Shown here: in pieces, positions 26,414 through 45,695 of the stretch
Numbering within the stretch: the first letter of the stretch is position 1
Layout of the letters: the number at the start of each line of letters is the position of its first letter
Assembly (NCBI GenBank): GCA_012845835.1
Contig: JABAKD010000028.1
Coordinates: 13,206,717 to 13,270,716 of the forward strand
Reading direction: 5' to 3'
Length of the DNA stretch: 64,000 nucleotides
Origin: Undaria pinnatifida
Taxonomy: Eukaryota; Sar; Phaeophyceae; Laminariales; Alariaceae
Program-made: the position numbers and the translations under genes
Notes under the pieces: generated by a model
What the model was told of the DNA's origin: nothing
Databases searched by the model: none
Seen by the model: only the letters and a program-made list of their open reading frames with translations

Positions 26414-26690
26414 TGGTCTGGTGTTAAGATACGGCCTCGAAAGGCCTGTAATTATCCGAATTTGAGATCATTTGGATGGGTTTCGTATGATAAAGTTGGC
26501 GGTTTATATTCGGGAAAGTTAGGAAGTAGATCGGAGGCACGTGCCTCCGATCTCAGAAGCTATCCCGGGCTCTGGTGGAAACGAATAAAGCTGCATCTCT
26601 ACGAAGGAACGAAAGCGAGTACTCTCCAAGGACCTGCTCAATTGACAGACCTGCAGGGGGCAATCTGTGTCCCCCACCTTTAACTTCACA
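26414..26690 (+). repeat. 5' LTR of the NADAR gypsy element
   Basis: It starts tggtct and ends acttcaca (TG...CA). Compared with the 3' LTR it lacks about 74 bp just after tggtct. It contains a perfect 26-bp palindrome at 26528-26553 centred on CACGTG. Confidence 0.85.
26528..26553. promoter_or_regulatory. perfect 26-bp palindrome in the LTR, CACGTG core
   Basis: Each half is agatcggaggcac. The centre forms CACGTG, the E-box/G-box core bound by bHLH and bZIP factors in other eukaryotes. It is preserved unchanged in the 3' LTR (38886-38911) although the flanks differ. A regulatory role is inferred. Confidence 0.5.
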
Positions 26691-28195: not shown

Positions 28196-28440
28196 GTACA
28201 TGTGCTGCCCCTCCACAATGCTGCTACTAGGATAAATGCTGCAAAACTTTTGACAGGGTCCCACAACGCTGCTAGGATAAATGCTGCAAAATTTTTCACG
28301 GGGATCCACAATGCTGCTAGGATAAATGCTGCAATTTGTTTTTCGGGGCTCCACAATGCTGCTAGGATAAAAGCTGCAACTTGTTTTACAAGGTTCCAAG
28401 ATGCTGCTAGGATAAATGCTACAATTTTCTTTTTGCAGCT
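28196..28440. repeat. 45-bp tandem repeat, five copies
   Basis: Units start at ~28212, 28261, 28306, 28351 and 28396. Each contains ccacaatgctgctaggataa and atgctgcaa. The 45-bp period equals 15 codons, so frames on both strands stay open. Plus-strand peptides repeat HNAARINAA, and minus-strand peptides repeat CSIYPSSIV. It is probably non-coding leader. Confidence 0.85.
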
Positions 28441-28699
28441 GTCACGACGGGTACTGTCAGTTGCAATGCGGTTTACAGTTGGCGGAGATGCTGAGCACTA
28501 TACTACTGTGGGCGCAAACGCTGCCTTTCTGCTGCTGTTGGTACATGTGCACCCTTCACGATAATGCTAGGGTCTACGCTGGAATTTTTTTTCTTCTTCT
28601 CTGCACATGTTCGGACAGCTACTGCCCGTTACAGAGCGCTTACTACACAGCTGTAATCAGCTCTACTGTAGGCGCGACCGTCCCCCTTTAGTTCGGTCG

Positions 28700-29400
28700 G
28701 GGGAAACTACCTTGTTCGGGGGGTTATACTGTCCGTTTTTTATACGGTTGGTGCGCGAACGTATACTGTCCTACCCCCCCCTACACTACTGTGGGGGCAG
28801 ATGCTGCCCGTTTCTATACGGTTGGCTGCGCGATCCTTCACTGTGCTACCCCCCCCCTACACTACTGTTGGGGTGGATGCTGCCCGTTTTTTATACGGTT
28901 GGTGTGCGATCCTCTACTGTCCTACCCCCTCTTACACTACTGTTGGGGCAGATGCTGCCCGTTTTTTTCATACGGTTGGCGGGGCGAACCTTTATTGTGC
29001 TACCCCCTACACTGCACCTAGGGTAAATGCTACCTGTTTTGGTGCGATGAGCCTCGACGTGTCAGACGACCCTTTACTATGCTGCCCCCCTACACTAGGT
29101 TAAATGCTGCCTGTTTTGATACGATGAGCGTCGGCGTATTGGGCGAGCCTTCATTGTGCTACCCCCTACACTGCACCCAGGTTAAATGCTGCCTGTTTTG
29201 ATGCGATGGGCGTGGGCTTCTTGTGCAGCCCTTTACTGTGTGATGCCCCAATACACTGCACCTAGGTTAAATGCTGCCCGTTTTGGTGCGATGGGCATGG
29301 GCGGTTTGGGCGACGCTGATGCCTGTTTAACTGCGATGGCTGCAGACGTACCTTTACTGTGTTGCACCCCCTGCACTGCGGTTAGGGTCAGTGCTGCCCA
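28700..29400. repeat. ~75-85-bp degenerate tandem repeat, at least seven copies
   Basis: The block atgctgcccgtttt preceded by ctaccccc.tacact recurs near 28800, 28876, 28951, 29025, 29103, 29184 and 29270. Later units drift in sequence and length. It lies just upstream of gag. Confidence 0.8.
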
Positions 29401-29719: not shown

Positions 29720-31730
29720 ATGTCTACCAGTGACGAAGCGGGCTACTCGGGGCAGGCTGAGGTCTTCCACGCACCCCAACCTGGATGCCCACGAGACAAG
29801 GAGAGCTCGCTCGAGATCCCGCGACTCGAGAAGGGGGGAACCACCGGAGGCGGGTTCCGGTGACGAGACAGAAGACGGAGTACCATACCTCCACCCGGAC
29901 CCACCAACCAAGAGGGTCGACTCGCCGGTTGGCGCAGAGAAGAAGACGGATCAACCCCCACCGGACTCGGGGGCGTCTCGACGCCAGCTCTCGCCAGCCC
30001 CGGGGGAGCGCCACGAGCTGCCCCCCCCTACGCTCGACAGGGCACCACCGCCGCTCTCCGCGCTCGACAGAGCGCAACCGCCAGAGCTTCCGGGACCGGG
30101 GCGCCCATGATGCCTTCTTGGACTTGGCACACGCGGCGGCGCGGGCCCAGCGGGCGCTCGACGACGTCAACCAGGCGATAGCACGCCGACGTCGGTTTGA
30201 CGAAGATATCGAGCAAGCGAAGACCGCTGCGCGGGAGGCGCCCCTGGTAGCGAAGAGGGCGCAACAAGCCGTCGCCCAACCAGTTGCGTCGGCTGCGGCG
30301 GGAGCTACCGCGCCCCCCTCGCTTTCGTCGCGCCCGCAGGGCGTCGCATCCCAGCGATCACGACCCCGGAACGACGCCTTCACCAAGGGCATCGTCGCGT
30401 GCATAGCCTCTGCGCCGAGGGTAGACTTCTCCTCAGCGTTGGTGACCGCGGTGGTGGAAACGGCCTGCGCCCGCCTCTCGTCACAGAGGCCAGCGTCGGG
30501 GGAAGCGGACGTTCTTTCAGTGGAAGCGGCCTGGACTCGCGTGGATTGTACGCCCTACGCTAGACAGACGAGAGCCGCCCCGACCCTTGCCCTCGTCAAG
30601 GCCCTGCTGATAGCCCACGTCGAGGACCCCGACCCTGTCGTTTTGCCGAACCCCGGAGGAAGAGTTGGCACAACGAAATCGTGGAGGTGGCGGCAAAAAT
30701 GGTGGGGGTGGCGGCCACCACCACCGCCGCGGGGGAGACAGCGCATCGGGTGCTGGTGTGGCTGAGGGCGCCGCCGATGGGGCAACTTTGGTCCAACAAC
30801 CGGGTTGGCCGCAGCTCTGGCGGAGGCAACGGAGGGCGGAGGAATGGCGCGAGAGGACGTTCAGCGTGGGACGGCTCGTCAACCTCCTCCCACTCGTCTT
30901 CGTTCTCGAGCACGGACGACCACAGCGAGGTGGCCGTGGTAGCAGGCAAAAAGGTGTCAAGAGCCGTGGCAGGAGGAGCATCTGGGCCTGAGGCTTTCAC
31001 CCTCCTGTTGCGTCTGCTGATCACGCACTTCGACGGGGTTGACACGGAGGAGGGCTACACTGAGTTTCATATTTTTGAAATGTGTAACGGCATGCCTTTT
31101 TCTGATTTCAGTTGGGAGTTTCGCGTACTTGTGCCGACCGCTACGGGGAGTGAGCGTGTTTTGTCTCCGACGACGGATGTGGTATTGGAGGTGGTTCAGG
31201 TGGCGGCGAATGAGCAATTTCCGGCTCTCCTGCCTGCTTTGTACCTTGGTTCGAAGGCAACGTACCCGCGGCCATACGCCGCGTTGGATGCTATGTGGCG
31301 GGATTTTAGTCACTAAGAAGACACCTGCCGTCAGTGCTCCCTGTTTCTTCGACGGAAGCGCGGTCATGCGCCCTGTCGGGGCCCCGGCCCGCCGATCATA
31401 GGCGCGGCCAGGGCCAAGTGCCGTCCCAGTCGCTTTCGTGGTAGCCGGGATAGAGCCATCATTCAACTATCATGCCCATCGATGATTTATCTGCCCCTTG
31501 GCTTGACCACACATCGATCTGCTGGCCACTTGAAGAGCATCATTATGCAGAAGGTTTCGCCGTTAAGGCCTCGTTTTAGACAGACGATCCTCCCTTTTGG
31601 AGCGGCCTCCTTTCACCTCGCGCTGATGCCCTCCGAGAAAACCGGGGGCTTTGCCTCAACTGCCACGAAGACAACCATTCCTTCAAGCATGGTAGGCATC
31701 CTTTCATTACTGCGAGTGGCTGCTTGAACC
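29720..31730 (+). pseudogene. gag: gag of the NADAR gypsy element, frameshifted
   Basis: The reading starts at an ATG at 29720 (in acaagcaacatg) but soon hits a stop at 29861. The Pro/Asp-rich N-terminus continues in the next frame (29730-30110). An Ala-rich helical segment (FLDLAHAAARAQRALDDV) is in a third frame (30110-30765). A capsid-like part containing FHIFEMCNGMPFSDFSWEF ends at 31316. A zinc knuckle CLNCHEDNH follows at ~31652, with the last Cys replaced (CX2CX4HX4G). At least three frameshifts separate these pieces. Gag would form the particle and bind RNA, but this copy cannot be translated whole. Confidence 0.7.
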
Positions 31731-33099
31731 CTGAACTTGGCCAACTTGGCGACGATGACGCACACCGACGTTTACACACACGCATGGTCTGCTACCGCCG
31801 AGACGACAAATCTTCTCGCCCGAACAACCACAAGAAAAATCGCAGGTAAACTGCCACAAGGATAACACATACGCACGTCGGATCACGATGGTGGTATCCC
31901 GTGCTCGCCCGCCTCTTCTGCCTCCGCTCCTGCCCCTTGAATGCGATTTGGATCCGCCCATAACCCAGGCGGAAATACTCACGCGCGCCAGCTTGGCACA
32001 CTCCGTAACGGCAATCGACAGCTCGATGGCGGTACGGCACCGTCGACAACACTGTCGGGGGGCACCTATTTCGTTTTCAGAAGATGCTTGTTTTCTGTTG
32101 CTAGCCTGTCCAATAACGCAGCACAGATTGCTTCTGTCAAGAGCCCACGGGGTCTACGCCGTCTGCAGACGATTCTCACGGCGTATTACCGGCGGCGGGA
32201 ACTAGCGCGTCGAGCGTGGTTTCCCCAGCCAGGTAATTTGTTTTTCTTTCGTTTTTTTTCGACGGTGAGAACGCGCGTTTCCAGCGACGTTCCCCTCGGT
32301 CATGGTCTGAGTTCAGCGACAGGAACCGCGCTTCCAGCGCTGTCTCCCTCAGCCGAGGCATAAACTCAGCAATGGGGATACCCGCTCCAAACGCCGCCCC
32401 CATCAACCATGGCACGGCAGCCTGCGCTTTGCGCGCTCCCCCCCCAGGCACGCGTCGCGCAACAATATAGCTGCGGCGACGGCGCGTCACCTTTTTACGC
32501 GTATGTGTTCATCCCACCCTCTCCCTGACCAGGCGATGGTGGTCGGTTTGAAGTATGGGACGGTCGACCCTCGAAACAATTTTTCTGACCACGAGGTGGC
32601 GGTCGATTTGAGGTGTGGGAAGGCCAACACTAAAACACCGAGATCTTTTGCGAGGCTCGATCCGGTGTTTGTTCGCGATAACAGCGGGCGCTCTGTCCAT
32701 TTTTTCCATCAAGGAGGAGTCGACAAGATTAGCTACCTCGTCTCCCTTCTCCAAGAGGCATAACGGAAGAGAGCTTCCTCGGGTAACAATATTATTGCCT
32801 TGCCCGAGCCCCGCTTCAGAAGACGCTCACAGGGTCTACGGACCCTGCTTCGTTTTTTATCATGCTAACCCAAGTGTTTCAGGCTACGTCTGCCCCAGTG
32901 GCACGGGAAGAAGATCCGACACTGCGCGACAGGCCAGTGGTGACTCCACGGCCTCCAGCCAGATCAGCTGGACGCTATTCCCGTAAATTTACGGAGGAAT
33001 CGCGCCCCTCGTCAAGCAGAAAGAGCTCAGAGCCCCTGCCCCTTCGGACGCATTTAGAGCAGTTTTCTTGCGATTATACGCCAAAACTCGAACAGGCCA

Positions 33100-33650
33100 C
33101 GACGAGAGAAACCGTGGTTTCGGACTCACGTCATGCTCCCGAGGCCTGGTGTTCCTTAGGGGGACACTACAGGCCCAAAGAGCCGAGGACTGGTGTTCCC
33201 AGAGGGGGACATTGCAGACCCAAATGCCCAGCGAGGCTACCGACGGGTTGGCACCGTCGGTGTTGGACTCTTTTTCGGGTGCAGCGAGGGCGGCTTCTTA
33301 CGAGTTTCCGCCAGCAAGTGAGGAGAACCCGAGGCGAGAAACCCCAGGTTCGGACTCGCATCTTGCTCCCGAGGCCTGGTGCTCCCGCAAGGGGACACTA
33401 CAGACCCAAAGAGCCGAGGACTGGTGTTCCCAGAAGGGGACATTGCAGACCCACAAATGTCCAACGAGGCTACCGACGGGTTGGCACCGTCGGTTTTTGC
33501 CATTTTTCGGGCGCAGTTAGAGCGTATTCTCGCGCTTTTCCGCCAACGAGCGAAGAAAGACCCGAGGCGAGATACCACGGGTTCGGATTCGCGTCGTGCT
33601 CCCGAGGCCTAGTGTTCCTGAACGGGGACATTGCAGGCCCAAATAACACC
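33100..33650 (+). repeat. ~230-bp tandem repeat between gag and NADAR
   Basis: The block cccgaggcctggtg recurs at 33138, 33368 and 33601, giving about 2.4 units. Inside each unit a ~45-bp subrepeat (ctggtgttcccagaggggga, cattgcagacccaaa) is doubled. In one frame the units encode EATDGLAPSV repeats, a possible linker between Gag and the NADAR domain. Confidence 0.8.
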
Positions 33651-33684: not shown

Positions 33685-34165
33685 CCAAAGTGGTGTTATT
33701 CTGGCAGCCCCCATCCTATTTTCCACCGTGGTCTCCTTCGTCGTTTGCCGCGGACAACGTGTCATATTCTTGCGCGGAGCAGTACATGATAGCCGAAATA
33801 CCAAGCTTTTGCAAGACCATCGAGCAGTGGGGCTCATCATGTCGTCGCTTCGTCCAAGCACACGCAAACGAATCGGTCGAGGCGTGCGCAACTTTGACTC
33901 CGCTGTTGGGGACAGGGAGAAGCAAACCGCCGTGTTATCTGGCACCTACGCCAAATTCACGCAAAATCCAGCCATAAAATAAAATCAACTTTTGAGCTCT
34001 GACAACAAGCTTGTGGCTGAATTCAGTCCTCTGCACCCAGTGTGGGGCATTGGTCTCCGGGCGGGTGGTCCCAGGGCCAACAGCCCATGCCAGGGGAGAG
34101 GAAAAACTTGCTCGGTGAGGCACTTTCTGCCGTTCGCGAAGCTATTCGCGACAATGAGACAGGGT
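33685..34165 (+). pseudogene. NADAR domain (DUF1768/YbiA-like) within a retrotransposon, broken
   Basis: The order of motifs fits the NADAR fold over its whole ~155 residues. VLFWQPPSYFPPWSPSSF and YSCAEQYMIAE are in one frame (33688-33800). IMSSLRPSTRKRIGRGVRNF and YAKFTQNP follow after a frameshift, then a TAA at ~33978. NKLVAEFSP and VWGIGLRA are in the same frame, and KNLLGEALSAVREAIRDNE comes after a second frameshift near 34105. NADAR proteins act on ADP-ribose-type N-glycosides: YbiA in the riboflavin pathway, and others removing ADP-ribose from guanine in DNA. The acidic residue usually four before WG is His here. With one stop and two frameshifts this copy is inactive. It sits just upstream of RNase H, where RT would be expected. 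Confidence 0.85.
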
Positions 34166-34429
34166 CGGCGCACCCGGCCTCCCCTAGTCGGTTCCGCACC
34201 TGCACTGTGAATGCAAGAACCAAGGAATTCCGTCCGCGCCGCAACCGGGCCGTTAACAGCGGCCAGCGCTCGCAAAACTTCCCCTTCGGCGTTTCCGACC
34301 TACTTCTCGGGCGCGTTGGCCCAATAGTAGAAGTGGAGTTTTGGAGATAGCTTCTGGCGTCGGCCCTAACCTTGAGCTGTCAGAACGCGGCCCCTGTTTC
34401 GTCAAGGGTACTGTGACGCTGGATGACCT

Positions 34430-34760
34430 TTTGTTCACTATGAAAATCGCTTATATCAGTCGAGCAACGCTCGACTCGGAGAGGCACTGGACTCCTCTAG
34501 ATTTGGGGACCGGCAGCATTGTTTGGGCTCTCAAACGACTTCGAGGGTACTGTGGGGAACAAAGGTCCGCATATCCTCCGGCCACAAGACACAGGCGAGC
34601 ATTGGCAAAGTGGGGACCCTCAATGCACGAGTCCAGCGGTAGCTTGAGTTCGTCATCGCGTCCGACCGCACACTCGAGTTCCGCAAAGGCAGCACCAACA
34701 GCATCGCCGATTTTTCTGGCCCGTTTTCCAGAGCCTGCTACGCAGTACAACCGCAGTGGC
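34430..34760 (+). pseudogene. pol: RNase H domain of gypsy pol, degenerate
   Basis: One frame reads AYISRATLDSERHWTPL and SIVWALKRLRGY, the RNase H entry of Ty3/gypsy pol. After a frameshift near 34560 the next frame reads SIGKVGTLNARVQR, a stop, then LEFVIASDRTLEFRKGS and NSIADF. The usual Glu in the LE.GSIVWA motif is Gly here. No RT palm (YXDD) was found in the ~270 bp separating this domain from NADAR. Confidence 0.75.
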
Positions 34761-35779: not shown

Positions 35780-37560
35780 ATGATGAGTTACGTTTCTACC
35801 GGCCGGCCATCGATCCTGCCGCTCGACTTTTTGGCGTGCTACCTCTCGCACAAGCGTCCATCCCTCTCAGACCTCAAGGAGTTGGCGGGCAAGGGTCGAC
35901 TACATGCAACCGATGACGACATCGTCCTACTCGTCCGCAACCCGACACTGCCACCAACAAGGTCTGACAAACCAACTCTGTGGTGCGAGCTGCTTGCTTG
36001 CTAAACGACGAGTCAGTTCGCATCTACGTTACCCTGCTCATGCGCCTTTGGATCATGCAAGCTTGTCACTCGACGGCCTCTTGTCATCTTGGCACCACGC
36101 GCACGTTGTCCATGCTGGAGCGGTTTTACAGGTGGATTGGCGTGAATATGTTCACCCGGTGATGGCTTCGCCACTGCTTGAAGTGCCAGGCGCGGAAAAC
36201 CCCATGGCTGACTGTCCGCTGGCCCATCATCACAATGCCTCTGCCGGAAGGTCCAGGTGCCGCCGTCAGTGTTGGCTACTTCCGCCCCCTTGCAGTCACC
36301 CCACGAGGAAACACCTACATCCTGCTGTTCACCGATCGCTTCAGTCCTCGGGCCGACATATTCTCCGTCACTGCCGCTAAGTTCACCGCGGAGGGTACAG
36401 CCAATATCCTGGTGAACCAATACATCCCCTTGTGGGGGTGCCCGCGCACCATACTCTCGGACAACGGACCCCATTTCTGCTCCAAGCTTTCACAAGCTGT
36501 ATATTAGCTGTTGGGTGTGCACAAGCTTGCTACAAGCTCCTATCATCGCAACTATAACGGGGGCGTTGAGCGGGTAGATCACACTGTGGCCCAAATGCTG
36601 GCTATGGTCGTCAACGAGCGACAGGACGATTGGGACTTGCATCTGCTCCACGTCGAATTCGTTTACAACAATTCAGTCAGCGCGGCGACAGGTCTGGCGC
36701 CTAACGAGGTCTACATGAACAGACTCCCACCACTCCCCCTAACGGTTTTCGACCGCACTGGCGTCGTGGGACACCAGAGTTTGCCCCGTGACCACCTGGC
36801 CTATTGAAAATTGGCCACCGATCGGCAAAAGCGCGCAAAAGACATTGTCCGCGCACACCACGCCCTCACCGTTTCTCGTTTTAACTACATAAACTCCGCC
36901 CTCGCCGACGCACTGCGTCCAGCACTAAACGTCGCTACGGATGGTTGGGCATGGGTGTACGATTCTGCCTATACCATCCGCCAGGGTGTGCAGGCGAACA
37001 CCGACGCCAAGGTACTCAAGGCCAAACTCGCGCTTAACTGGACGGGCCCGTACAAAATTCTGGCAGTCGGTCCCAGCTCCGCCGCCGAGACCCCGGACAG
37101 TTCGCCGCTGGGGAGCAACCTCCTCTATTTGGATCTCCCTTCCGACCTGCCTGGTTCGGACGCTCGTTGGCGTGTGGCCATTGAACGCTTCAAACCCTGC
37201 GCCAACCCCCACGACAGGGAGGACATGCCCAAATACCTACCGGCGGGGTTGACACAGTACGTGCTCAACAACTTTTCCAAGACGTCCCCGCCGTACCACG
37301 TCACTCAAGACGACGTTTCGACTCCCCTCCAACGGCTGGAGTGGAGCAGATCACTGGTCATCACTCGGTACGGGGGCGAGGTGGCGTCTTCGCGGTGCTA
37401 TACAAGACGCATTGGGTGGGAATCTCCCACATCTTACGTTATTGGGCCGGAACCCCGGACAAGCACCGCCAAACCAACCGCCTCCACCGCCGAATGCGGA
37501 TCGGGGCGGTACAGCGTGAGCTCTCCCGCAACAACGGAGAACGTTTCCTAGCGCCGGGCT
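35780..37560 (+). pseudogene. pol: integrase with GPY/F module and chromodomain remnant, mutated
   Basis: A pre-integrase linker (DLKELAGKGRLH, DDDIVLLVRNP) leads to an HHCC zinc-binding region (CHSTASCHLG...HCLKCQARKT, ~36060-36200). The core follows (SVGYFRPL, YILLFTDRFS, TILSDNGPHF, NGGVERVDHT, 36260-36570). The first catalytic Asp (usually SVDYFGPL) is Gly; the second Asp and the Glu are present. Stops interrupt at 36001, 36505 and 36805. The GPY/F module is LNWTGPYKIL (~37040). A chromodomain-like RGRGGVFAVLYKTHWVG is at ~37358-37410, its second half apparently deleted. The enzyme would insert cDNA into chromatin, but this copy is dead. Confidence 0.8.
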
Positions 37561-37624
37561 ACGCCTGTGTTCCCCGCGCCGATTAGCTCCGTCGCTACCA
37601 CGACACAGTACTCCCTAAGGGAGC

Positions 37625-37861
37625 CCACTTTGGTACAAGGGAGACGATGGGTTATGGTGGCTTGGACAAATCAGCGCGAGCATTACCGAGGACAAGGTAT
37701 ACCTGGTCCGCTTTCTGGACGACCCGGGACCGATTAAACTTCCTCTTTCTCCGGCGCGCTACACGATTCTGACGGGAGCCGTACGAGGCTCTTGGTGCTT
37801 GCAACTTCACATCGCCAGTGCGTTCCCTCGGGGAATCCAACGTAACGTAGACGAATCTTGA
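37625..37861 (+). pseudogene. C-terminal tudor-like domain of the gypsy pol
   Basis: An open frame reads KGDDGLWWLGQIS, VYLVRFLDDPGPIKLPL and ARYTILTGAVRGSW, and ends at a TGA at 37859. The W-x-G-x-I...YLVRFLDDPG pattern resembles tudor/agenet-like barrels. The link is by pattern only. Together with the chromodomain remnant it would give the polyprotein two histone-reader-type modules at its end. Confidence 0.45.
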
Positions 37862-38697: not shown

Positions 38698-39048
38698 TGG
38701 TCTAGTTCGTAGAACCGGAGTTTCCCCTAATCTCCCATATTTCTGCATATATATTATGCGACTCATCAGGGTGGACTAGTGTTATGGTACGGCCTCGAAA
38801 GGCCTCTAATTATCCGAATTTGAGATCATTTGGATTGGTTTCGTATGATAAGGCTGACGGTTTATATTCAGGAAAGTTAGGAATTAGATCGGAGGCACGT
38901 GCCTCCGATCTCAGAAGCTATCCCGGGCTCTGGTGAAAACGAATAAAGCTACATCTCTACGAAGGAACGAAAGTGGGTACTCTCCGAGGACCCGCTCAAT
39001 TGGCTGACCTGCAGGGGGTACTCTGTGCCCTCCACCTTTAACTTCACA
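38698..39048 (+). repeat. 3' LTR of the NADAR gypsy element
   Basis: 351 bp, TG...CA (tggtctag ... acttcaca). It is full-length relative to the 5' copy and carries the same 26-bp palindrome at 38886-38911. The sequence aataaag at 38941 may be the polyadenylation signal. Confidence 0.85.
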
Positions 39049-39669: not shown

Positions 39670-39800
39670 GTCGCCGACCTGTATCCTTAATCAGAACACA
39701 CAACCCGTCATATGCGCGATCGGAGTATCACACATAGCTTGCAAAGATGAGTGTCGACAAAATATTCGATCTCACAGATGGAGTGTATCGTAATTTTTAT
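39670..39800 (-). mobile_element. family C terminal fragment
   Basis: It carries gtcgccgacctgtatccttaat, acacaacccgtcatatgcgcgatcgg, cttgcaaagatgagtgtcgac and ctcacagatggagtgtat, the outer ~130 bp of family C in right-end orientation. It lies next to the foldback element at 39858. Confidence 0.65.
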
Positions 39801-39857
39801 AATAATTTGTATCCCTCTAGGATGAAGGGGCAGCACGAATACTAAGGCTAATTCTTA

Positions 39858-41455
39858 TAGAGTCGGATTTGTCAGTCGAAAACGGCCTTTTTCGACTGAC
39901 AGAAGCCCAAATCGGGCTTTCTTAGGCCATTTCTTATGCAGTCGTCGGATTCCGCCAGTCGAAAACGGCCCTTTTCGGCTGGACTTTTTTTCGACTGGAT
40001 TCTTCTGGTCCTTCTTCTTATCGTCAGTCGAGTTGGTTTTATTGTTCTTGTGCTCTTCCTAGAGGCGGTTGGTGTGAGGGAGTACTGCTGTACAGCAGGC
40101 GAAATCGGTTGGCAGCTGTGCTTCGCGCTGTCTCCGCGAGCAACGGCTCGACGAACCTTCGTACCAGCGAGTTGGTGGCTTTGGGCTTCACCGAAAGCCG
40201 CCAACGCTACGTTCGTGGAGTTGCACTCAGCCGAGAGCCGTTAAAGCTACAGCAGGCGCAGCCGTTGTTGGCAGCATGGGATCGCTACCGCGTGCTGCTG
40301 CCGTCGTGTGATACACGCTGCTGGCCAGCGGAACTAGGAATGCGCCACGCTGAGTTGCTGCGAAAAGCAACATCAGGGATAGCCAAGCCAGCGTCAGCGC
40401 CTTGTATGATACTGCAGTGTGGTACTTGGTATGGGTGTGTGGCCGTGTGGCCGTGTGGGTGTGTGTTTGGTGGTGGGATGGGCGATGCGATCAGCTGAAA
40501 AAACTCGTGAAAAACTTTTTCGACTGAGTTTTTCGACGACTGGAGGATCCAGTCGAAAAGGTCGAGTTTTCGACTGGATCCGCTAGTCGGGATTCTCAGT
40601 CGAAAAAAGTTGAGTCAAAAAAGCCCTTTTTTAGCGACTGCGTAAGAAAGCCCGATTTGGGCTTCAGTCTAAAAATACTGTTTTCGACTGACAAATCCGA
40701 CCGCATAAGAAACGGCCTTACGCAGTCGCAAAAAGGCTTTTTCGACTCAGCTTTTTTCGACTGAGAATTCCGACTGGCGGATCCAGTCGAAAAACTCGAC
40801 CTTTTTTCCAGTCGAAAAACTCGACCTTTTCGACTGGATCCTCAAGCCGAAAAACTCAGTCGAAAAAGTTTTACACGTGTTTTTTGAACCGACCGCATCG
40901 CTCATCCCACCACCAAACACACACCCACACGGTCACACGGCCTCACACCCATACCAAGTACCACACTGCAGTATCTTACAAGGCGCTGACGCTGGCTTGG
41001 CTATCTCTGATGTTGCTTTTCGCAGCAACCAGCGTGGCGAATTCCTAGTTTTGCTGGCCAGCAGCGTGTATCACACGACGGCAGCAGCGCGTGGTATTGA
41101 TCCCATGCTGCCAACAACGGCTGCGCCTGCTGTAGCTTTGGCAGCTCTCGGCTGAGTGCAACTCCACGAACGTAGCTTTGGCGGCTTTCGGCTAAGCCCA
41201 AAGCCACCAACTCGCTGGTACGAAGGTTCGTCGAGCCGCTGCTCGCGGAGACAGCGCGAAGCACAGCTGCCTACCGATTTCGCCTGCTGTACAGCAGTAG
41301 TAGTAGTACTCCCTCACACCAACCGCCTCTAGGAAGAGCACAAAAACTACAAAAAAAAGCAACTCGACTGACGATAAGAAGAAGGACCAGAAGAGTCCAG
41401 TCGAAAAGGGCCGTTTTCGACTGGCGGAATCCGACTGCATAAGAAATGGCCTAAT
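39858..41455. mobile_element. foldback element F, copy 2
   Basis: The arms, ~39924-40690 and ~40690-41455, are reverse complements. The ends are ta|ggccatttcttatgcagtcg and its complement |ta, consistent with a TA target. The centre (40500-40870) is a cluster of alternating CAGTCGAAAA/TTTTCGACTG hairpins, often as CAGTCGAAAA...GGATCC... units. An extra module (agtcggatttgtcagtcgaaaacg) lies outside the left end at 39858. No transposase is present. The arms match copy 1 at 2885-4507 closely, so the family is or was mobile. Confidence 0.8.
40109..40498 (+). other. ORF conserved in the arms of the foldback element
   Basis: The frame reads AVSASNGSTNLRTSELVALG, ESRQRYVRGVALSREPLKLQ, QAQPLLAAWDRYRVLLPSC, DTRCWPAELGMRHAELLRKA. 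The opposite arm (minus strand, 41264-41001) and the left arm of copy 1 (in the 2904-3497 frame) keep the same peptide with substitutions and few indels. No known domain was recognised. It may be a captured piece of host gene rather than an active protein. No start context or promoter is evident. Confidence 0.35.
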
Positions 41456-41884
41456 AAGTGTATTATTGGTATCGTTGGGTAGCAAGAACATGATAAAATA
41501 TGATCTACGACCTGGTACATGTAGTAACTGCTGTTCCAGAAATGCAGTCAGTCGTACCTACCTACAGAACAAGGTAGAAAGCTAAATACCAGGTATACCA
41601 GTGCGCATTACACGAGATTATTGAAAGATAAGAGACAAAACTTCGATTTCACAGATAAAGAGTAATTTTATTTCCATAATAAAGACAGGCGAGAATGAAC
41701 AATATGTTGGTGATATAGAGTCTAGACGTACTACCCATTGGCCCACGTAGTCACGTGACTGCGCGGGCCAGTGGGTCGTGCTATATAACCAACAAAATAT
41801 GTGTTTGGGAGTCCGCCAATTGACCCTCACCGACTTCGTGAAAGGGATCTCCGGGGCTCTCAGCTTGGGCCAGTGGGTAGTGCT
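41456..41884. other. no gene; short palindrome near 41740
   Basis: The segment gcccacgtagtcacgtgactgcgcgggc (given as gcccacgtagtcacgtgact and gcgcgggc) around 41742-41770 is partly palindromic, and gccagtggg is repeated at ~41769 and ~41870. No coding region was seen. Confidence 0.35.
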
Positions 41885-42589
41885 ATATTATAAAAATTAA
41901 AATACACTCCAGCTGTGAGATCGAAGATTTCGTCGAAACTCATCTTTGCAAGCTGTGTGTGATACTCCGATCGCGCGCATTACGAGTTGTGTGTCCTCAC
42001 TAAGGAAATAGGTCGGCGACTCCCCTTACAACTACAGTGTAGCTATCAGGGTCAACAGGATGATTTTAGTCAGTCTGTGCGCGGAAACTATAAAACCCGT
42101 TTCTGAGGGGGACAAAATCTGACAGCTGTGAAGGGAAAAGGGGGCCTGGTTTTGATCAAAAGCGAGCGGGTTTGGAGGGGAGCGGGGGGGGGAAGGGAAG
42201 GGGCAATTTGTGCATGTAAGCTATAAATCCTTTCGAGGGGATAAATCTGACCGTTTTGGCATCAGTATATTATTGGGGGCGGGGGGGGGGGGGGGGGGGG
42301 TTGGGCGGGCGGGGGGGGTTTGGGCGGGCGGGGCAGCTCAATATGTGCCTGGAAACTATACATTTTTTTGAGGGGATAAATGTGACAGTTTTGGAAATAA
42401 TACATCAGTTTATCATGTACATCCTGGGGTAAGTCGTACAATCAGTGAGTAAAGAGAGGGTGGAGTGTTCGAGGGGGTGGGGTTGGGATGGGTTGGGGGG
42501 GGAGGGTGGGGGGTGGGGGGGGGGTGGGGGGGCGTGGTGGGGGGGCGGGGGGGGGCGGGAAAGGGCTTTAGGTGAGGGGTTTGTTATAC

Positions 42590-43400
42590 GTGTGGTGCTA
42601 GGTCTAGGCGATGGTGCGGGTGATGGGGAAGAAGGGGGCGTTCGAGGCGGGGGGGGGGGGGGGAACACAGCGGCATGGATGGCTCTCGAAAGATAATGAG
42701 GTGATATCCTGTGCGTGAAGTGTTTATTAATGTGGCGGATTTCGATATTTGGTGGGGCGTTTGAGTAAGAGAGAGGAAGAGGGGGGGGGGGGGGAGAGAT
42801 TTTTAGGAGGTTTAGGTCACAAATAATATTCAAATACACTTCGACTGTGAGATCAAAGATATGTAGCAGCTTGTTATACGCGTGGTGCTAGGTCTAGGCG
42901 ATCGTGCAGGTGGTCGGGAAAGAGGGGGCGTTGGAGGGGGGGGGGGGGGAGGGGGGGGGGGGGGGGGGGGGACACAGCGGCATGGATGGCTCTCGAAAGA
43001 TAATGAGGTGATATCCTGTGCGTGAAGTGTTTATTAATGTGGCGGATTTCGATATTTGGTGGGGCGTTTGAGTAAGGGAGAGCAAGAGGGGGGGGGGGGG
43101 GGGGGGGGGGGATTTTTTAGGAGGTTTAGGTCACAAATAATTTTCAAATACACTTCGGCTGTGAGATCAAAGATATGTAGCAGCTTGTTATACGCGTGGT
43201 GCTAGGTCTAGGCGATCGTGCAGGTGGTCGGGAAAGAGGGGGCGTTGGAGGGGGGGGCGGGGGGGGGGGGGGGGGGATAATTGAAACCTTCGTCATGGAT
43301 GGTCAGAAAGATAATGACGTGGTATCAACTGCGTATAGGTGGTTTATTACTCAGGCCGATTTGATTGTGAGTGGGGCGTTTGGACAGACTAGGCGGAAGG
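42590..43400 (+). repeat. ~290-314-bp tandem units inside the left arm
   Basis: The block gtggtgctaggtctaggcga recurs at 42592, 42882 and 43196. It is followed each time by a G-run, then an acagcggcatggatggctct-type block (attgaaacc..tcatggatggt in the last), and ataatga.gtg.tatc. The unit length differs mainly by G-run length. Confidence 0.8.
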
Positions 43401-43540
43401 GGGGGTGGGGGGGGTGGGGGGGGGGGGGATCGGGGGACGGAGGGGCGGGGGGGGGGGGAAGGGGTGCGGGGTTTGTTATGAAAAAGAGGTCAGTGGAGGG
43501 GGAGGGGAGGGGGGGGGGGGGGGGCGGGACATTTCAATAT

Positions 43541-44040
43541 NNNNNNNNNNNNNNNNNNNNNNNNNNNNNNNNNNNNNNNNNNNNNNNNNNNNNNNNNNNN
43601 NNNNNNNNNNNNNNNNNNNNNNNNNNNNNNNNNNNNNNNNNNNNNNNNNNNNNNNNNNNNNNNNNNNNNNNNNNNNNNNNNNNNNNNNNNNNNNNNNNNN
43701 NNNNNNNNNNNNNNNNNNNNNNNNNNNNNNNNNNNNNNNNNNNNNNNNNNNNNNNNNNNNNNNNNNNNNNNNNNNNNNNNNNNNNNNNNNNNNNNNNNNN
43801 NNNNNNNNNNNNNNNNNNNNNNNNNNNNNNNNNNNNNNNNNNNNNNNNNNNNNNNNNNNNNNNNNNNNNNNNNNNNNNNNNNNNNNNNNNNNNNNNNNNN
43901 NNNNNNNNNNNNNNNNNNNNNNNNNNNNNNNNNNNNNNNNNNNNNNNNNNNNNNNNNNNNNNNNNNNNNNNNNNNNNNNNNNNNNNNNNNNNNNNNNNNN
44001 NNNNNNNNNNNNNNNNNNNNNNNNNNNNNNNNNNNNNNNN
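43541..44040. other. assembly gap, 500 N
   Basis: Exactly 500 N, probably an arbitrary gap size. It is flanked by G-rich sequence on the left and a C-run on the right, the expected failure point inside a long inverted repeat. Confidence 0.99.
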
Positions 44041-44172
44041 CCCCCCCCCCCCCCCCGCCCCCCGCCCCCCGCCTCGAACGCCTCCTTCTTCCCATCACCC
44101 GCACCATCGCCTAGACCTAGCACCACACGTATAACAAACCCCTCACCTAAAGCCCTTCCTTCACCCCCACCT

Positions 44173-44207
<35 letters not shown>

Positions 44208-45009
44208 CCCCGCCCCCGCCCCCACCCCCCACCTCCCCCCCAACCCATCCCAACCCCACCCCCTCGAACACTCCACCCTCTCTTTACTCACTGATTGTAC
44301 GACTTACCCCAGGATATACATGATAAACTGATGTATTATTTCCAAAACCGTCGCATTTATCCCCTCAAAATGTATAGTTTCCAGGCACATATTGAGCTGC
44401 CCCCCCCCGCCCCCCCCCCCCCCCCGCCCCAACCCCCCCCCCCCCCCCCCCCGCCCCCAATAATATACTGGTGCCAAAACCGTCAGATTTATCCCCTCGA
44501 AAGGATTTACAGCTTACATGCACAAGTTGCCCCCTCCCCCCCCCCCCCCTCCAAACCCGCTCGCTTTTGATCATAACCAGGCCCCCACGTCCTTCAAAAC
44601 TCCGCCCCACCCCCCTCACCGGTTATTCGACTTACAAGATTCACTTGATAAAAGGATACATTTCCCTTCACAGCTGTCAGGTTTTGCCCCCCTCAGAAAC
44701 GGGTTTTATAGTTTCCGCGCACAGACTGACTAAAATCATCCTGTTGACCCTGATAGCTACACTGTAGTTGTAAGGGGAGACGCCGACCTATATCCTTAAT
44801 GAGGACACACAACTCGTAATGCGCGCGATCGGAGTATCACACACAGCTTGCAAAGATGAGTTTCGACGAAATCTTCGATCTCACAGCTGGAGTGTATTTT
44901 CATTTTTTATAATAATATCCCCTCCTTTTTTGTTCCGCCCTGTTTGTTTAAACGCCCAACTTAAAATCGAAATCGGCCAGACTAATAAACACCTCTACGC
45001 AGTTGATAT

Positions 45010-45160
45010 CACGTCTTTTTTTTTTTTTTTTTATCCTCCGGCGGATGGGGAAAAATAAAGCTTTACCTCACCACACTTCCACGTATTTTCATACTCGTCG
45101 TGTGTCGATTTAACTCAGTTGCTTTGGCACCCCAACGCTAGCTGGCGCACCCTTCGAGTC
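45010..45160 (+). repeat. dispersed repeat D, copy 3
   Basis: A T-run, then ctccggcggatggggaaaaa, taaagctttacc, cacacttccacgtattttc and acgctagctggcgcaccctt, in the same order as the copy at 2585. It is inserted between two family C segments. Confidence 0.65.
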
Positions 45161-45164
45161 CCAT

Positions 45165-45695
45165 TGTTCCCCTAAAAATAATGTATAGTTTCCACGCACA
45201 GATTGAGCTGCCCCACCCGCCCCCCCCCCCCCCGCCCCCAACCCCCCCCCCTCCCCCTATGGTAGTTTCCACGCACAAGTTGAGCTGCCCAGCCCCCGCC
45301 CCCCTCTCCCTTTCTCTCCCCCCCCCCCCCCCCAACCACGTTCCCTTTGGATCAAAACCAGGCCCCCACGTCCTTCAAACCTCCGCCCTCCCCTCACCGG
45401 TTATTCGGCTTACAGGATTCACTTGATAAACGGATGCATTTCCTTCCACAGCTGTCAGATTTTGTCCCCCTCAGAAACGGGTTTTATAGTTTCCGCGCAC
45501 GGACTGACTAACATCACCCTGTTGACCCTGATATCTACACTTTAGTTGCAAGGGAAGTCGCCGACCTATATCCTTAATGAGGACACACAACCCGTAATAC
45601 GCGCGATCGGAGTATCAAGCACAGCTTGCAAAGATGAGTGTCGACAAAATATTCAATCTCACAGCTGGAGTGTATTTTCATTTTTTATAATATTA
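45165..45695 (-). mobile_element. family C right-end segment
   Basis: C-tract modules (gtttccacgcacagattgagctgcc, cccccacgtccttcaaacctccg, ccccctcagaaacgggtttt) lead to the terminus at ~45670 (tcaatctcacagctggagtg). The left arm is absent, so it is truncated. Confidence 0.65.

What the first reader, a model, noticed from the sequence alone, without database searches (positions are those of the whole stretch)
33685..34165. NADAR (DUF1768/YbiA-like) domain carried inside a Ty3/gypsy retrotransposon
Between two LTRs, downstream of gag and upstream of RNase H and integrase, the sequence encodes a full-length NADAR domain (motifs CAEQYM, RKRIGRGVRNF, YAKFTQNP, VWGIGL, KNLLGEALSAVRE), now broken by two frameshifts and a stop. 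NADAR enzymes process ADP-ribose-type N-glycosides, and some bacterial members remove ADP-ribose from guanine in DNA. A retroelement carrying one could counter a host ADP-ribosylation defence or act on its own cDNA or RNA. That role is inference. I am unsure whether such a fusion has been described in this lineage.
Basis: partly seen in the sequence, partly recalled or inferred. Interest (0 to 1): 0.88.

Follow-up and report, generated by a model that had tools for sequence, protein, structure and literature searches.

The report
Broken NADAR gene in kelp retrotransposon
A jumping element in a kelp genome carries the wreck of an enzyme domain whose relatives strip ADP-ribose from DNA and RNA bases; intact relatives of the element in the same genome still carry a working-looking version, a combination already reported in another brown alga.

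Summary
Window 33690-34152 is a NADAR (PF08719) domain broken by two frameshifts and a stop, inside a 12.6-kb LTR element (LTRs 26414-26690, 38772-39048), upstream of RNase H and integrase. It is no one-off: 150 NADAR matches were scored in the same 511-Mb genome (inferred: the kelp Undaria pinnatifida). At least two Gypsy families, A and B, have intact copies ordered gag, NADAR, protease, RT, RNase H, integrase, with catalytic residues kept.

The window copy belongs to a derivative of family A that lost 2.1 kb (protease active site, RT, start of RNase H). The 39 other places scored (of 824 candidates) share that junction, so the derivative multiplied without its own RT, probably through family A proteins. 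All 13 derivative copies examined share one NADAR frameshift.

NADAR-Gypsy elements were published for Ectocarpus in 2025 (PMC12477816), so the kind is known. New here: the kelp families, signs of purifying selection on NADAR before the break (dN/dS 0.19-0.37, A versus derivative) against near-neutral drift within the derivative (0.80), and a hint (AU p = 0.0145) that A and B acquired NADAR separately. Function in transposition remains inferred.

The parts
26414..26690 (+). 5' LTR, 277 bp, TG...CA
   Evidence: 92% identical to 38772-39048; 92.8% and 92.4% identical to the 3' LTRs beside two family A copies
30696..32050 (+). gag remnant, several frames, limits approximate; degenerate zinc-knuckle-like motif at 31652-31699; about 460 bp missing at 30948/30952 relative to family A
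   Evidence: blastn to L009 and L012; gag assigned by position and by a knuckle-like motif in the L009 frame; no Pfam hit
33045..33643 (+). about 230-bp segment upstream of NADAR in three tandem copies (third partial); single in the two family A copies compared
33690..34152 (+). NADAR (YbiA-like) domain, broken: two frameshifts and one stop (33980-33982)
33803..33976 (+). NADAR middle piece, profile positions 50-107
   Evidence: Pfam PF08719 E = 4.3e-8
34440..34446 (+). deletion junction: 2,087 bp of family A (protease active site, RT, start of RNase H) absent
   Evidence: L009 5891 and 3803 meet here; 39 other scored genomic places span it; 12 of 12 fetched copies contiguous, 2 of 2 intact copies split
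34446..34559 (+). RNase H remnant
   Evidence: PF17917 E = 1.2e-4, profile 33-70 of 105
36040..36144 (+). integrase zinc-binding domain (H2C2)
   Evidence: PF17921 E = 4.7e-5
36295..36495 (+). integrase core, first part; the frame stops at 36505-36507 and reopens in 36508-36804
   Evidence: PF00665 E = 8e-6; the reopened part gave no rve hit and is assigned by homology to family A pol
36808..37858 (+). C-terminal pol region, broken
   Evidence: homology to family A; only a non-significant Agenet match at 37646-37723, E = 0.21
38772..39048 (+). 3' LTR, 277 bp

Best explanation
Shown: the stretch is the decayed NADAR domain of an LTR retrotransposon that derives from a Ty3/Gypsy family (A) whose pol frame carries a NADAR domain in its N-terminal part. 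The derivative lost the protease active site, RT and part of RNase H in one deletion and still multiplied, so it was presumably copied by family A proteins in trans (inferred; shared LTR). In intact A copies NADAR keeps its catalytic residues and shows signs of purifying selection (with a sampling bias); in the derivative it changes near-neutrally. Most likely mechanism (inferred): NADAR enters the virus-like particle as part of Gag-Pol, ahead of the protease, and removes ADP-ribose from guanine bases of the element's RNA or cDNA, so that reverse transcription is not blocked. Because it acts in the shared particle, copies carried in trans do not need their own. My estimates: identity 0.95, trans-mobilised derivative 0.75, nucleic-acid de-ADP-ribosylation 0.4.
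For: NADAR Pfam match in the window and 150 scored matches genome-wide, best E 1.4e-49, 14 of the 150 in frames of exactly 2473 or 2371 aa. Domain order in four further copies; protease motif after NADAR and YxDD in RT in L009 and L010; in 40 more copies protease follows NADAR in 40 and RT in 39. Deletion mapped, present in 39 other scored places and contiguous in 12 of 12 fetched ones. LTR shared with two family A copies. Residues equivalent to P. nicotianae E43, K50, E125 and W133 kept in A, 10 of 13 ligand-site residues identical; their role is from passages of PMC11543638. dN/dS A versus derivative 0.19-0.37 over 13 comparisons, within the derivative 0.80 over 78 pairs. Variants shared by two or more of 36 intact A copies: 7 synonymous, 4 nonsynonymous, neutral expectation 3.4 nonsynonymous per synonymous (binomial 0.004). 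NADARs remove ADP-ribose from guanosine in DNA and RNA in vitro (passages of PMC11543638, PMC11125620, PMC11833690).
Against: No activity, particle or packaging was observed. E. coli YbiA is linked to riboflavin intermediates, so the substrate may be a metabolite; PMC11125620 reports that NADARs outside DarT operons do not act efficiently as antitoxins in its cell assays (passages). The 36 copies come from top-scoring, stop-free hits, which favours conserved sequences; their singleton variants give a weaker signal (24.5 synonymous, 42.5 nonsynonymous). The 13 dN/dS comparisons share one reference and are not independent, and they include change after the break. One older B copy (L011) has lost the E43 equivalent. 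Whether the alga has a guanine ADP-ribosyltransferase is unknown: four tries with one family did not complete. Family A and B NADARs differ at 52% of sites, RTs at 20%.
Confidence: 0.7

Rival explanations
1. NADAR in these elements acts on a metabolite or on NAD/ADP-ribose pools (house-cleaning, comparable to dUTPase in some retroviruses, from general knowledge) and not on ADP-ribosylated nucleic acid.
For: E. coli YbiA cleaves riboflavin intermediates, as stated in PMC11543638 (passage); family A and B NADARs are of the YbiA type with the last-strand glutamate; E. coli YbiA is less active on RNA than E. coli C7 NADAR (PMC11833690).
Against: Position in pol suggests co-packaging with nucleic acid (inference); the NADARs tested in PMC11833690 and PMC11125620 acted on guanosine-ADP-ribose in vitro (passages).
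Confidence: 0.25
2. NADAR serves as a structural or RNA-binding module of the precursor, and catalysis no longer matters.
For: No direct evidence; retroelements do recruit folds for binding (general knowledge).
Against: Equivalents of E43, K50, E125, D130 and W133 are conserved between families A and B despite 48% overall identity, one older B copy excepted.
Confidence: 0.15
3. The NADAR in the window is a recent one-off capture of a host or bacterial gene.
For: None found.
Against: Same position and a shared lesion in 12 sister copies; NADAR with protease downstream in 40 of 40 further fetched copies.
Confidence: 0.01
4. Families A and B did not inherit one NADAR but acquired it separately (or one replaced it) in the same slot. 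This concerns origin and can be true beside the best explanation.
For: A groups with standalone brown-algal NADARs (98/80) and is 57-61% identical to the ten best bacterial ones, only 48% to B; one-clade test rejected, p-AU 0.0145.
Against: The neighbouring protease (52%) and protease-RT stretch (55%) are about as divergent between A and B as NADAR (48%), so no sharp break marks a swap; groups were named after seeing identities; the branches between A and B are weak and the bootstrap had not settled; same slot is more simply explained by descent.
Confidence: 0.35

Closest known systems
Gypsy-12_Ec32 lineage of Ectocarpus sp. 7 (PMC12477816, Genome Biol 2025)
   Different: Here in another brown alga, two families with 48% identical NADARs, and an amplified RT-less derivative with a dead NADAR; Pfam recognised no chromodomain in the pieces scanned. 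The Ectocarpus sequences themselves were not compared.
Standalone NADAR proteins of brown algae (P0204 Pylaiella littoralis, P0215 Ectocarpus sp.)
   Same: Closest named relatives of the family A NADAR in the list, 60% and 54% identity; on the same supported branch in the tree (98/80).
   Different: Proteins of 248 and 241 aa as listed, not pol frames.
PDB 8bau (inferred to be the Phytophthora nicotianae NADAR, because it carries the 13 residues that the paper names) and E. coli YbiA (2b3w)
   Same: Same family; catalytic residues conserved with 8bau (E = 1.7e-14; YbiA 2.1e-4).
   Different: Free-standing enzymes.
NADAR-like ORF1 of Tx1 LINEs of Crassostrea gigas (as reported in PMC12477816)
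   Same: NADAR in a retrotransposon.
   Different: LINE, ORF1, distant; not examined here.

Membership tests
NADAR / YbiA superfamily (PF08719) | significant profile match | tested here: met
   window middle piece E = 4.3e-8, 34.0 bits against cut-off 35.1; intact family A copy E = 9.5e-51
NADAR / YbiA superfamily (PF08719) | catalytic E43, K50, E125 (P. nicotianae numbering) | tested here: met
   intact copies of A and B: met, except L011. Window copy: E43 and E125 positions kept, K50 and W89 positions changed, frame broken
NADAR / YbiA superfamily (PF08719) | enzymatic activity on ADP-ribose derivatives | not testable with these tools
   needs protein
Ty3/Gypsy LTR retrotransposon | LTRs, and RT before RNase H before integrase | tested here: met
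   RVT_1 and RT_RNaseH in L009, L010, L011 and L012; H2C2 and rve after them in L009 and L010. Window: both LTRs. Intact copies: only the 3' LTR of two copies was fetched and seen
Ty3/Gypsy LTR retrotransposon | own reverse transcriptase in the window copy | tested here: not met
   no RT or protease hit in the element; deletion mapped
Ty3/Gypsy LTR retrotransposon | target-site duplication | tested here: not met
   flanks differ; old or rearranged copy
NADAR-Gypsy lineage of brown algae (Gypsy-12_Ec32 type) | NADAR in N-terminal region of pol | tested here: met
NADAR-Gypsy lineage of brown algae (Gypsy-12_Ec32 type) | RT groups with the Ectocarpus NADAR-Gypsy lineage | not tested
   Ectocarpus element sequences not at hand
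NADAR-Gypsy lineage of brown algae (Gypsy-12_Ec32 type) | C-terminal chromodomain | tested here: inconclusive
   no Pfam hit at E 0.1 in L009:426-1844; a divergent domain is possible

The most novel reading that the evidence does not exclude
Brown-algal Gypsy elements took up NADAR more than once into the same slot before the protease, and it works as a particle-borne eraser of guanine ADP-ribosylation on the element's own RNA or cDNA. That would imply an unknown nucleic-acid ADP-ribosylation defence, or damage pathway, in brown algae, and non-autonomous relatives that ride on the eraser in trans.
Probability: 0.15. Interest if true: 0.8.

Novelty: new member of a known kind. Interest (0 to 1): 0.42.

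Why it matters
If the autonomous families need NADAR and their trans-carried derivative does not, the kelp genome offers a natural comparison for asking what the enzyme does for a retrotransposon. It would link nucleic-acid ADP-ribosylation, known mainly from bacterial toxin-antitoxin and phage defence, to mobile elements of eukaryotes. The kind itself is already in print, so the added value is the comparison and the signs of selection.

Tried and rejected
One-off insertion: rejected. Chance motif resemblance: rejected. RT hidden elsewhere in the element: 30 of the 80 plus-strand stop-to-stop pieces of 50 aa or more were scanned in Pfam and gave no RVT hit, and tblastn with family A and B protease and RT against the whole element found none. 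A NADAR swap seen as a sharp identity break between A and B: not found. Short NADAR pieces against solved structures gave nothing significant (best E 0.69 and 2.4). A standalone host gene nearer than family A in this genome: of 1679 candidates 150 were scored with P0215, and the best-scoring ones are family A places; a gene split by introns could be missed. A DarT-family transferase in the genome: not completed. Literature: 'NADAR + retrotransposon' (104 papers, 20 listed), 'NADAR domain + Ty3' (1), 'NADAR + YbiA' (11), 'DUF1768 + retrotransposon' (0), 'NADAR + Gypsy + brown alga' (2), 'Undaria + NADAR' (12, 5 listed). Among what was listed, one paper, PMC12477816, treats NADAR in retrotransposons; its supplements were not read. 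No structure model was made, because the profile match was decisive.

Full report
Where it is. The window lies at C35:13206717-13270716 of a genome of 511,146,479 bases in 68 contigs. Contig C34 is 16,510,065 bases long, exactly the scaffold N50 printed for the Undaria pinnatifida assembly in PMC7058681, whose scaffolds total 511,280,173 bases (passages seen).

The observation. An LTR pair of 277 bp, TG...CA, stands at 26414-26690 and 38772-39048 with 254 of 277 bases identical (16 transitions, 7 transversions, K2P 0.089). No target-site duplication was seen, and by eye the polypurine tract is weak. Between the LTRs NADAR spans 33690-34152: an N-terminal piece in one frame, a middle piece in a second frame that meets a stop at 33980-33982 and reopens in the same frame, and a last piece in a third frame. 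The middle piece matches Pfam NADAR at E = 4.3e-8 (34.0 bits, cut-off 35.1) and the following one continues the profile at E = 0.14; the frames of the first and last pieces gave no hit. Against 5.8 billion proteins the middle piece finds 132 matches among 133 candidates at E <= 0.001; of the 120 listed, all at E <= 1.7e-13, 118 carry PF08719. RNase H, integrase zinc domain and integrase core follow.

Not a one-off. PF08719 in the same genome gives 150 scored matches out of 1454 candidates, best E 1.4e-49, all 150 above the curated cut-off; 9 lie in open frames of 2473 aa and 5 in frames of 2371 aa. The control search over 14 named genomes rang in 3, E. coli among them. The copies fetched fall into two families. 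In four of them, L009 and L012 (family A), L010 and L011 (family B), Pfam finds NADAR, then RT, then RNase H; in L009 and L010 also integrase zinc domain and core, in that order. Frames upstream in L009 (717 aa, cut by the end of the stretch), L010 (898 aa) and L012 (512 aa) gave no Pfam hit; I take them as gag from their position and, in L009, a zinc-knuckle-like motif. An aspartic-protease motif lies between NADAR and RT in L009 and L010, and their RTs carry YxDD; Pfam protease hits in L010 and L011 are below threshold. Of 40 further copies (L013-L052, chosen from the stop-free matches, mostly at the top of the list) 40 have protease and 39 have RT downstream of NADAR; 28 are family A and 11 family B by RT. 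Conversely, of the 150 best RNase H hits in the genome one has a listed NADAR within 6 kb upstream. Both lists are cut at 150, so this shows only that the best-scoring other Gypsy-type elements lack a listed NADAR.

What the window copy is. Compared with L009, window 33655-34440 matches L009 6667-5891 and window 34446-34923 matches L009 3803-3349: 2,087 bp are absent, from pol residue about 652, just before the protease active site (671), to about 1348, inside RNase H; against L012 the gap has the same length. tblastn with family A and B protease and RT finds nothing in the element. About 460 bp of the gag part are also missing at 30948/30952, seen against both L009 and L012, and a segment of about 230 bp ahead of NADAR is present three times in tandem. 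The 441 bases across the deletion (34200-34640) find 824 candidates in the genome; 40 were scored, the window itself among them, and all 40 span the query from base 1-3 to its end, the 39 others at 91-94% identity. The scored ones are the best candidates, so this is a lower bound on copy number, not a proportion. The 12 best of the 39 others were fetched; 12 of 12 run contiguously across the junction, while both intact copies split there. The window LTR is 92.8% and 92.4% identical to the 3' LTRs next to the L009 and L012 copies. So the element belongs to an RT-less derivative of family A that multiplied, presumably with family A proteins.

State of NADAR in the derivative. In the window and all 12 fetched copies (13 of 13) one single-base frameshift near the C-terminus is shared and the residue equivalent to W89 is changed; the first frameshift of the window has a counterpart in 1 of the other 12 copies; an A-rich tract varies in length between copies. 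By eye, database proteins from unnamed contigs (for example P0006, P0020, P0163, P0184) read through the same C-terminal shift. The domain was therefore already broken when the derivative spread.

Selection. Counting codons in the intact frame, L009 against the 13 derivative copies gives dN/dS 0.19-0.37 (dS 0.30-0.58), whereas the 78 pairs within the derivative give 0.80 as a ratio of means. The first figure mixes change before and after the break. Among 36 intact A copies (L030 and L045 were left out, L002 is the same place as L009) variants seen in two or more copies are 7 synonymous and 4 nonsynonymous, against a neutral expectation of 3.4 nonsynonymous to 1 synonymous (binomial 0.004), while singletons are 24.5 and 42.5, which is nearer to neutrality. 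The copies were chosen from stop-free, high-scoring hits, which biases toward conservation, and the 13 comparisons share one reference. RT and integrase were not measured for comparison.

Catalytic residues. The intact A NADAR matches PDB 8bau (E = 1.7e-14) and E. coli YbiA 2b3w (2.1e-4). With an offset of two, the 8bau chain carries all 13 residues that I took from the passages of PMC11543638 on P. nicotianae NADAR, so I take it to be that protein; family A has the same letter at 10 of the 13, including E43, K50, E125, D130 and W133. Family B keeps these five in the alignments, except L011, an older copy that has lost E43. In the window copy the K50, W89 and D130 positions are changed. From passages of PMC11543638, PMC11125620 and PMC11833690, NADARs remove ADP-ribose from guanine in DNA and RNA in vitro, while those outside DarT operons are poor antitoxins in cells.

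Origin. Family A NADAR is 57-61% identical to the ten best bacterial loci (nine Myxococcota, one Planctomycetota) in the scan of bacterial and archaeal genomes, which kept 80 of 106 relatives, 60% and 54% to proteins of Pylaiella and Ectocarpus, but only 48% to family B. In a tree of 51 rows (6 of 57 rows dropped beforehand: five frameshifted, one partial; 23 of the 80 bacterial loci used) A groups with the brown-algal proteins (98/80) and B lies apart on weakly supported branches. Holding A and B together is rejected at p-AU 0.0145, and together with the brown-algal proteins at 0.0166. Against this, the groups were named after I had seen the identities, the bootstrap had not settled, and between A and B the protease (52%) and protease-RT stretch (55%) are about as divergent as NADAR (48%), while RT is 80%, RNase H 76% and integrase 69% identical. 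Separate capture is possible, not shown.

What is known. I found no print record for Undaria in one search (12 papers, 5 listed, whose titles concern seaweed products), and no mention of an RT-less NADAR-Gypsy derivative in the passages of PMC12477816 on non-autonomous elements (12 of 14 places shown).

Mechanism. The best-supported picture: NADAR travels in Gag-Pol into the particle and acts there as a hydrolase; nucleic-acid ADP-ribose is the substrate best supported by the biochemistry of the family, but a metabolite is a real rival. The derivative, copied in shared particles, would not need its own enzyme, which fits the contrast in selection. All of this beyond the sequence facts is inference.

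Noticed in passing
39693-41997: Nested long inverted repeats (arms 270, 182, 112 and 64 nt, 89-94% complementary) just downstream of the 3' LTR: perhaps a foldback element or hairpin-RNA locus.
   Followed up: no
42275-45333: G-rich then C-rich runs, a 314-bp unit in about 2.5 copies at 42644-43426, and a 500-base N gap at 43541-44040; the strong GC-skew switch may reflect an assembly join.
   Followed up: partly
28222-29325: Tandem repeat families (45-bp and about 80-bp periods) in the 5' part of the element, ahead of gag.
   Followed up: no
L009:7845-7847 and L003-L008: In family A, the gag and pol frames are in register, split by one TGA in L009 and in 6 of 7 near-identical copies checked (L001 differs at that offset): a possible stop-codon readthrough for Gag-Pol. 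In L010 (family B) the frames are out of register.
   Followed up: partly
L133-L139: NADAR relatives (45-51% identity) on seven IMG/VR contigs of 22-462 kb, so long contigs classed as viral also carry fairly close NADARs.
   Followed up: no
PMC7922944: An Ectocarpus stress gene, Esi0017_0056 (391 aa, DUF1768 at 132-291), was studied in Arabidopsis; the term 'transpos' does not occur in the main text. Whether it derives from a NADAR-Gypsy element deserves a check.
   Followed up: no
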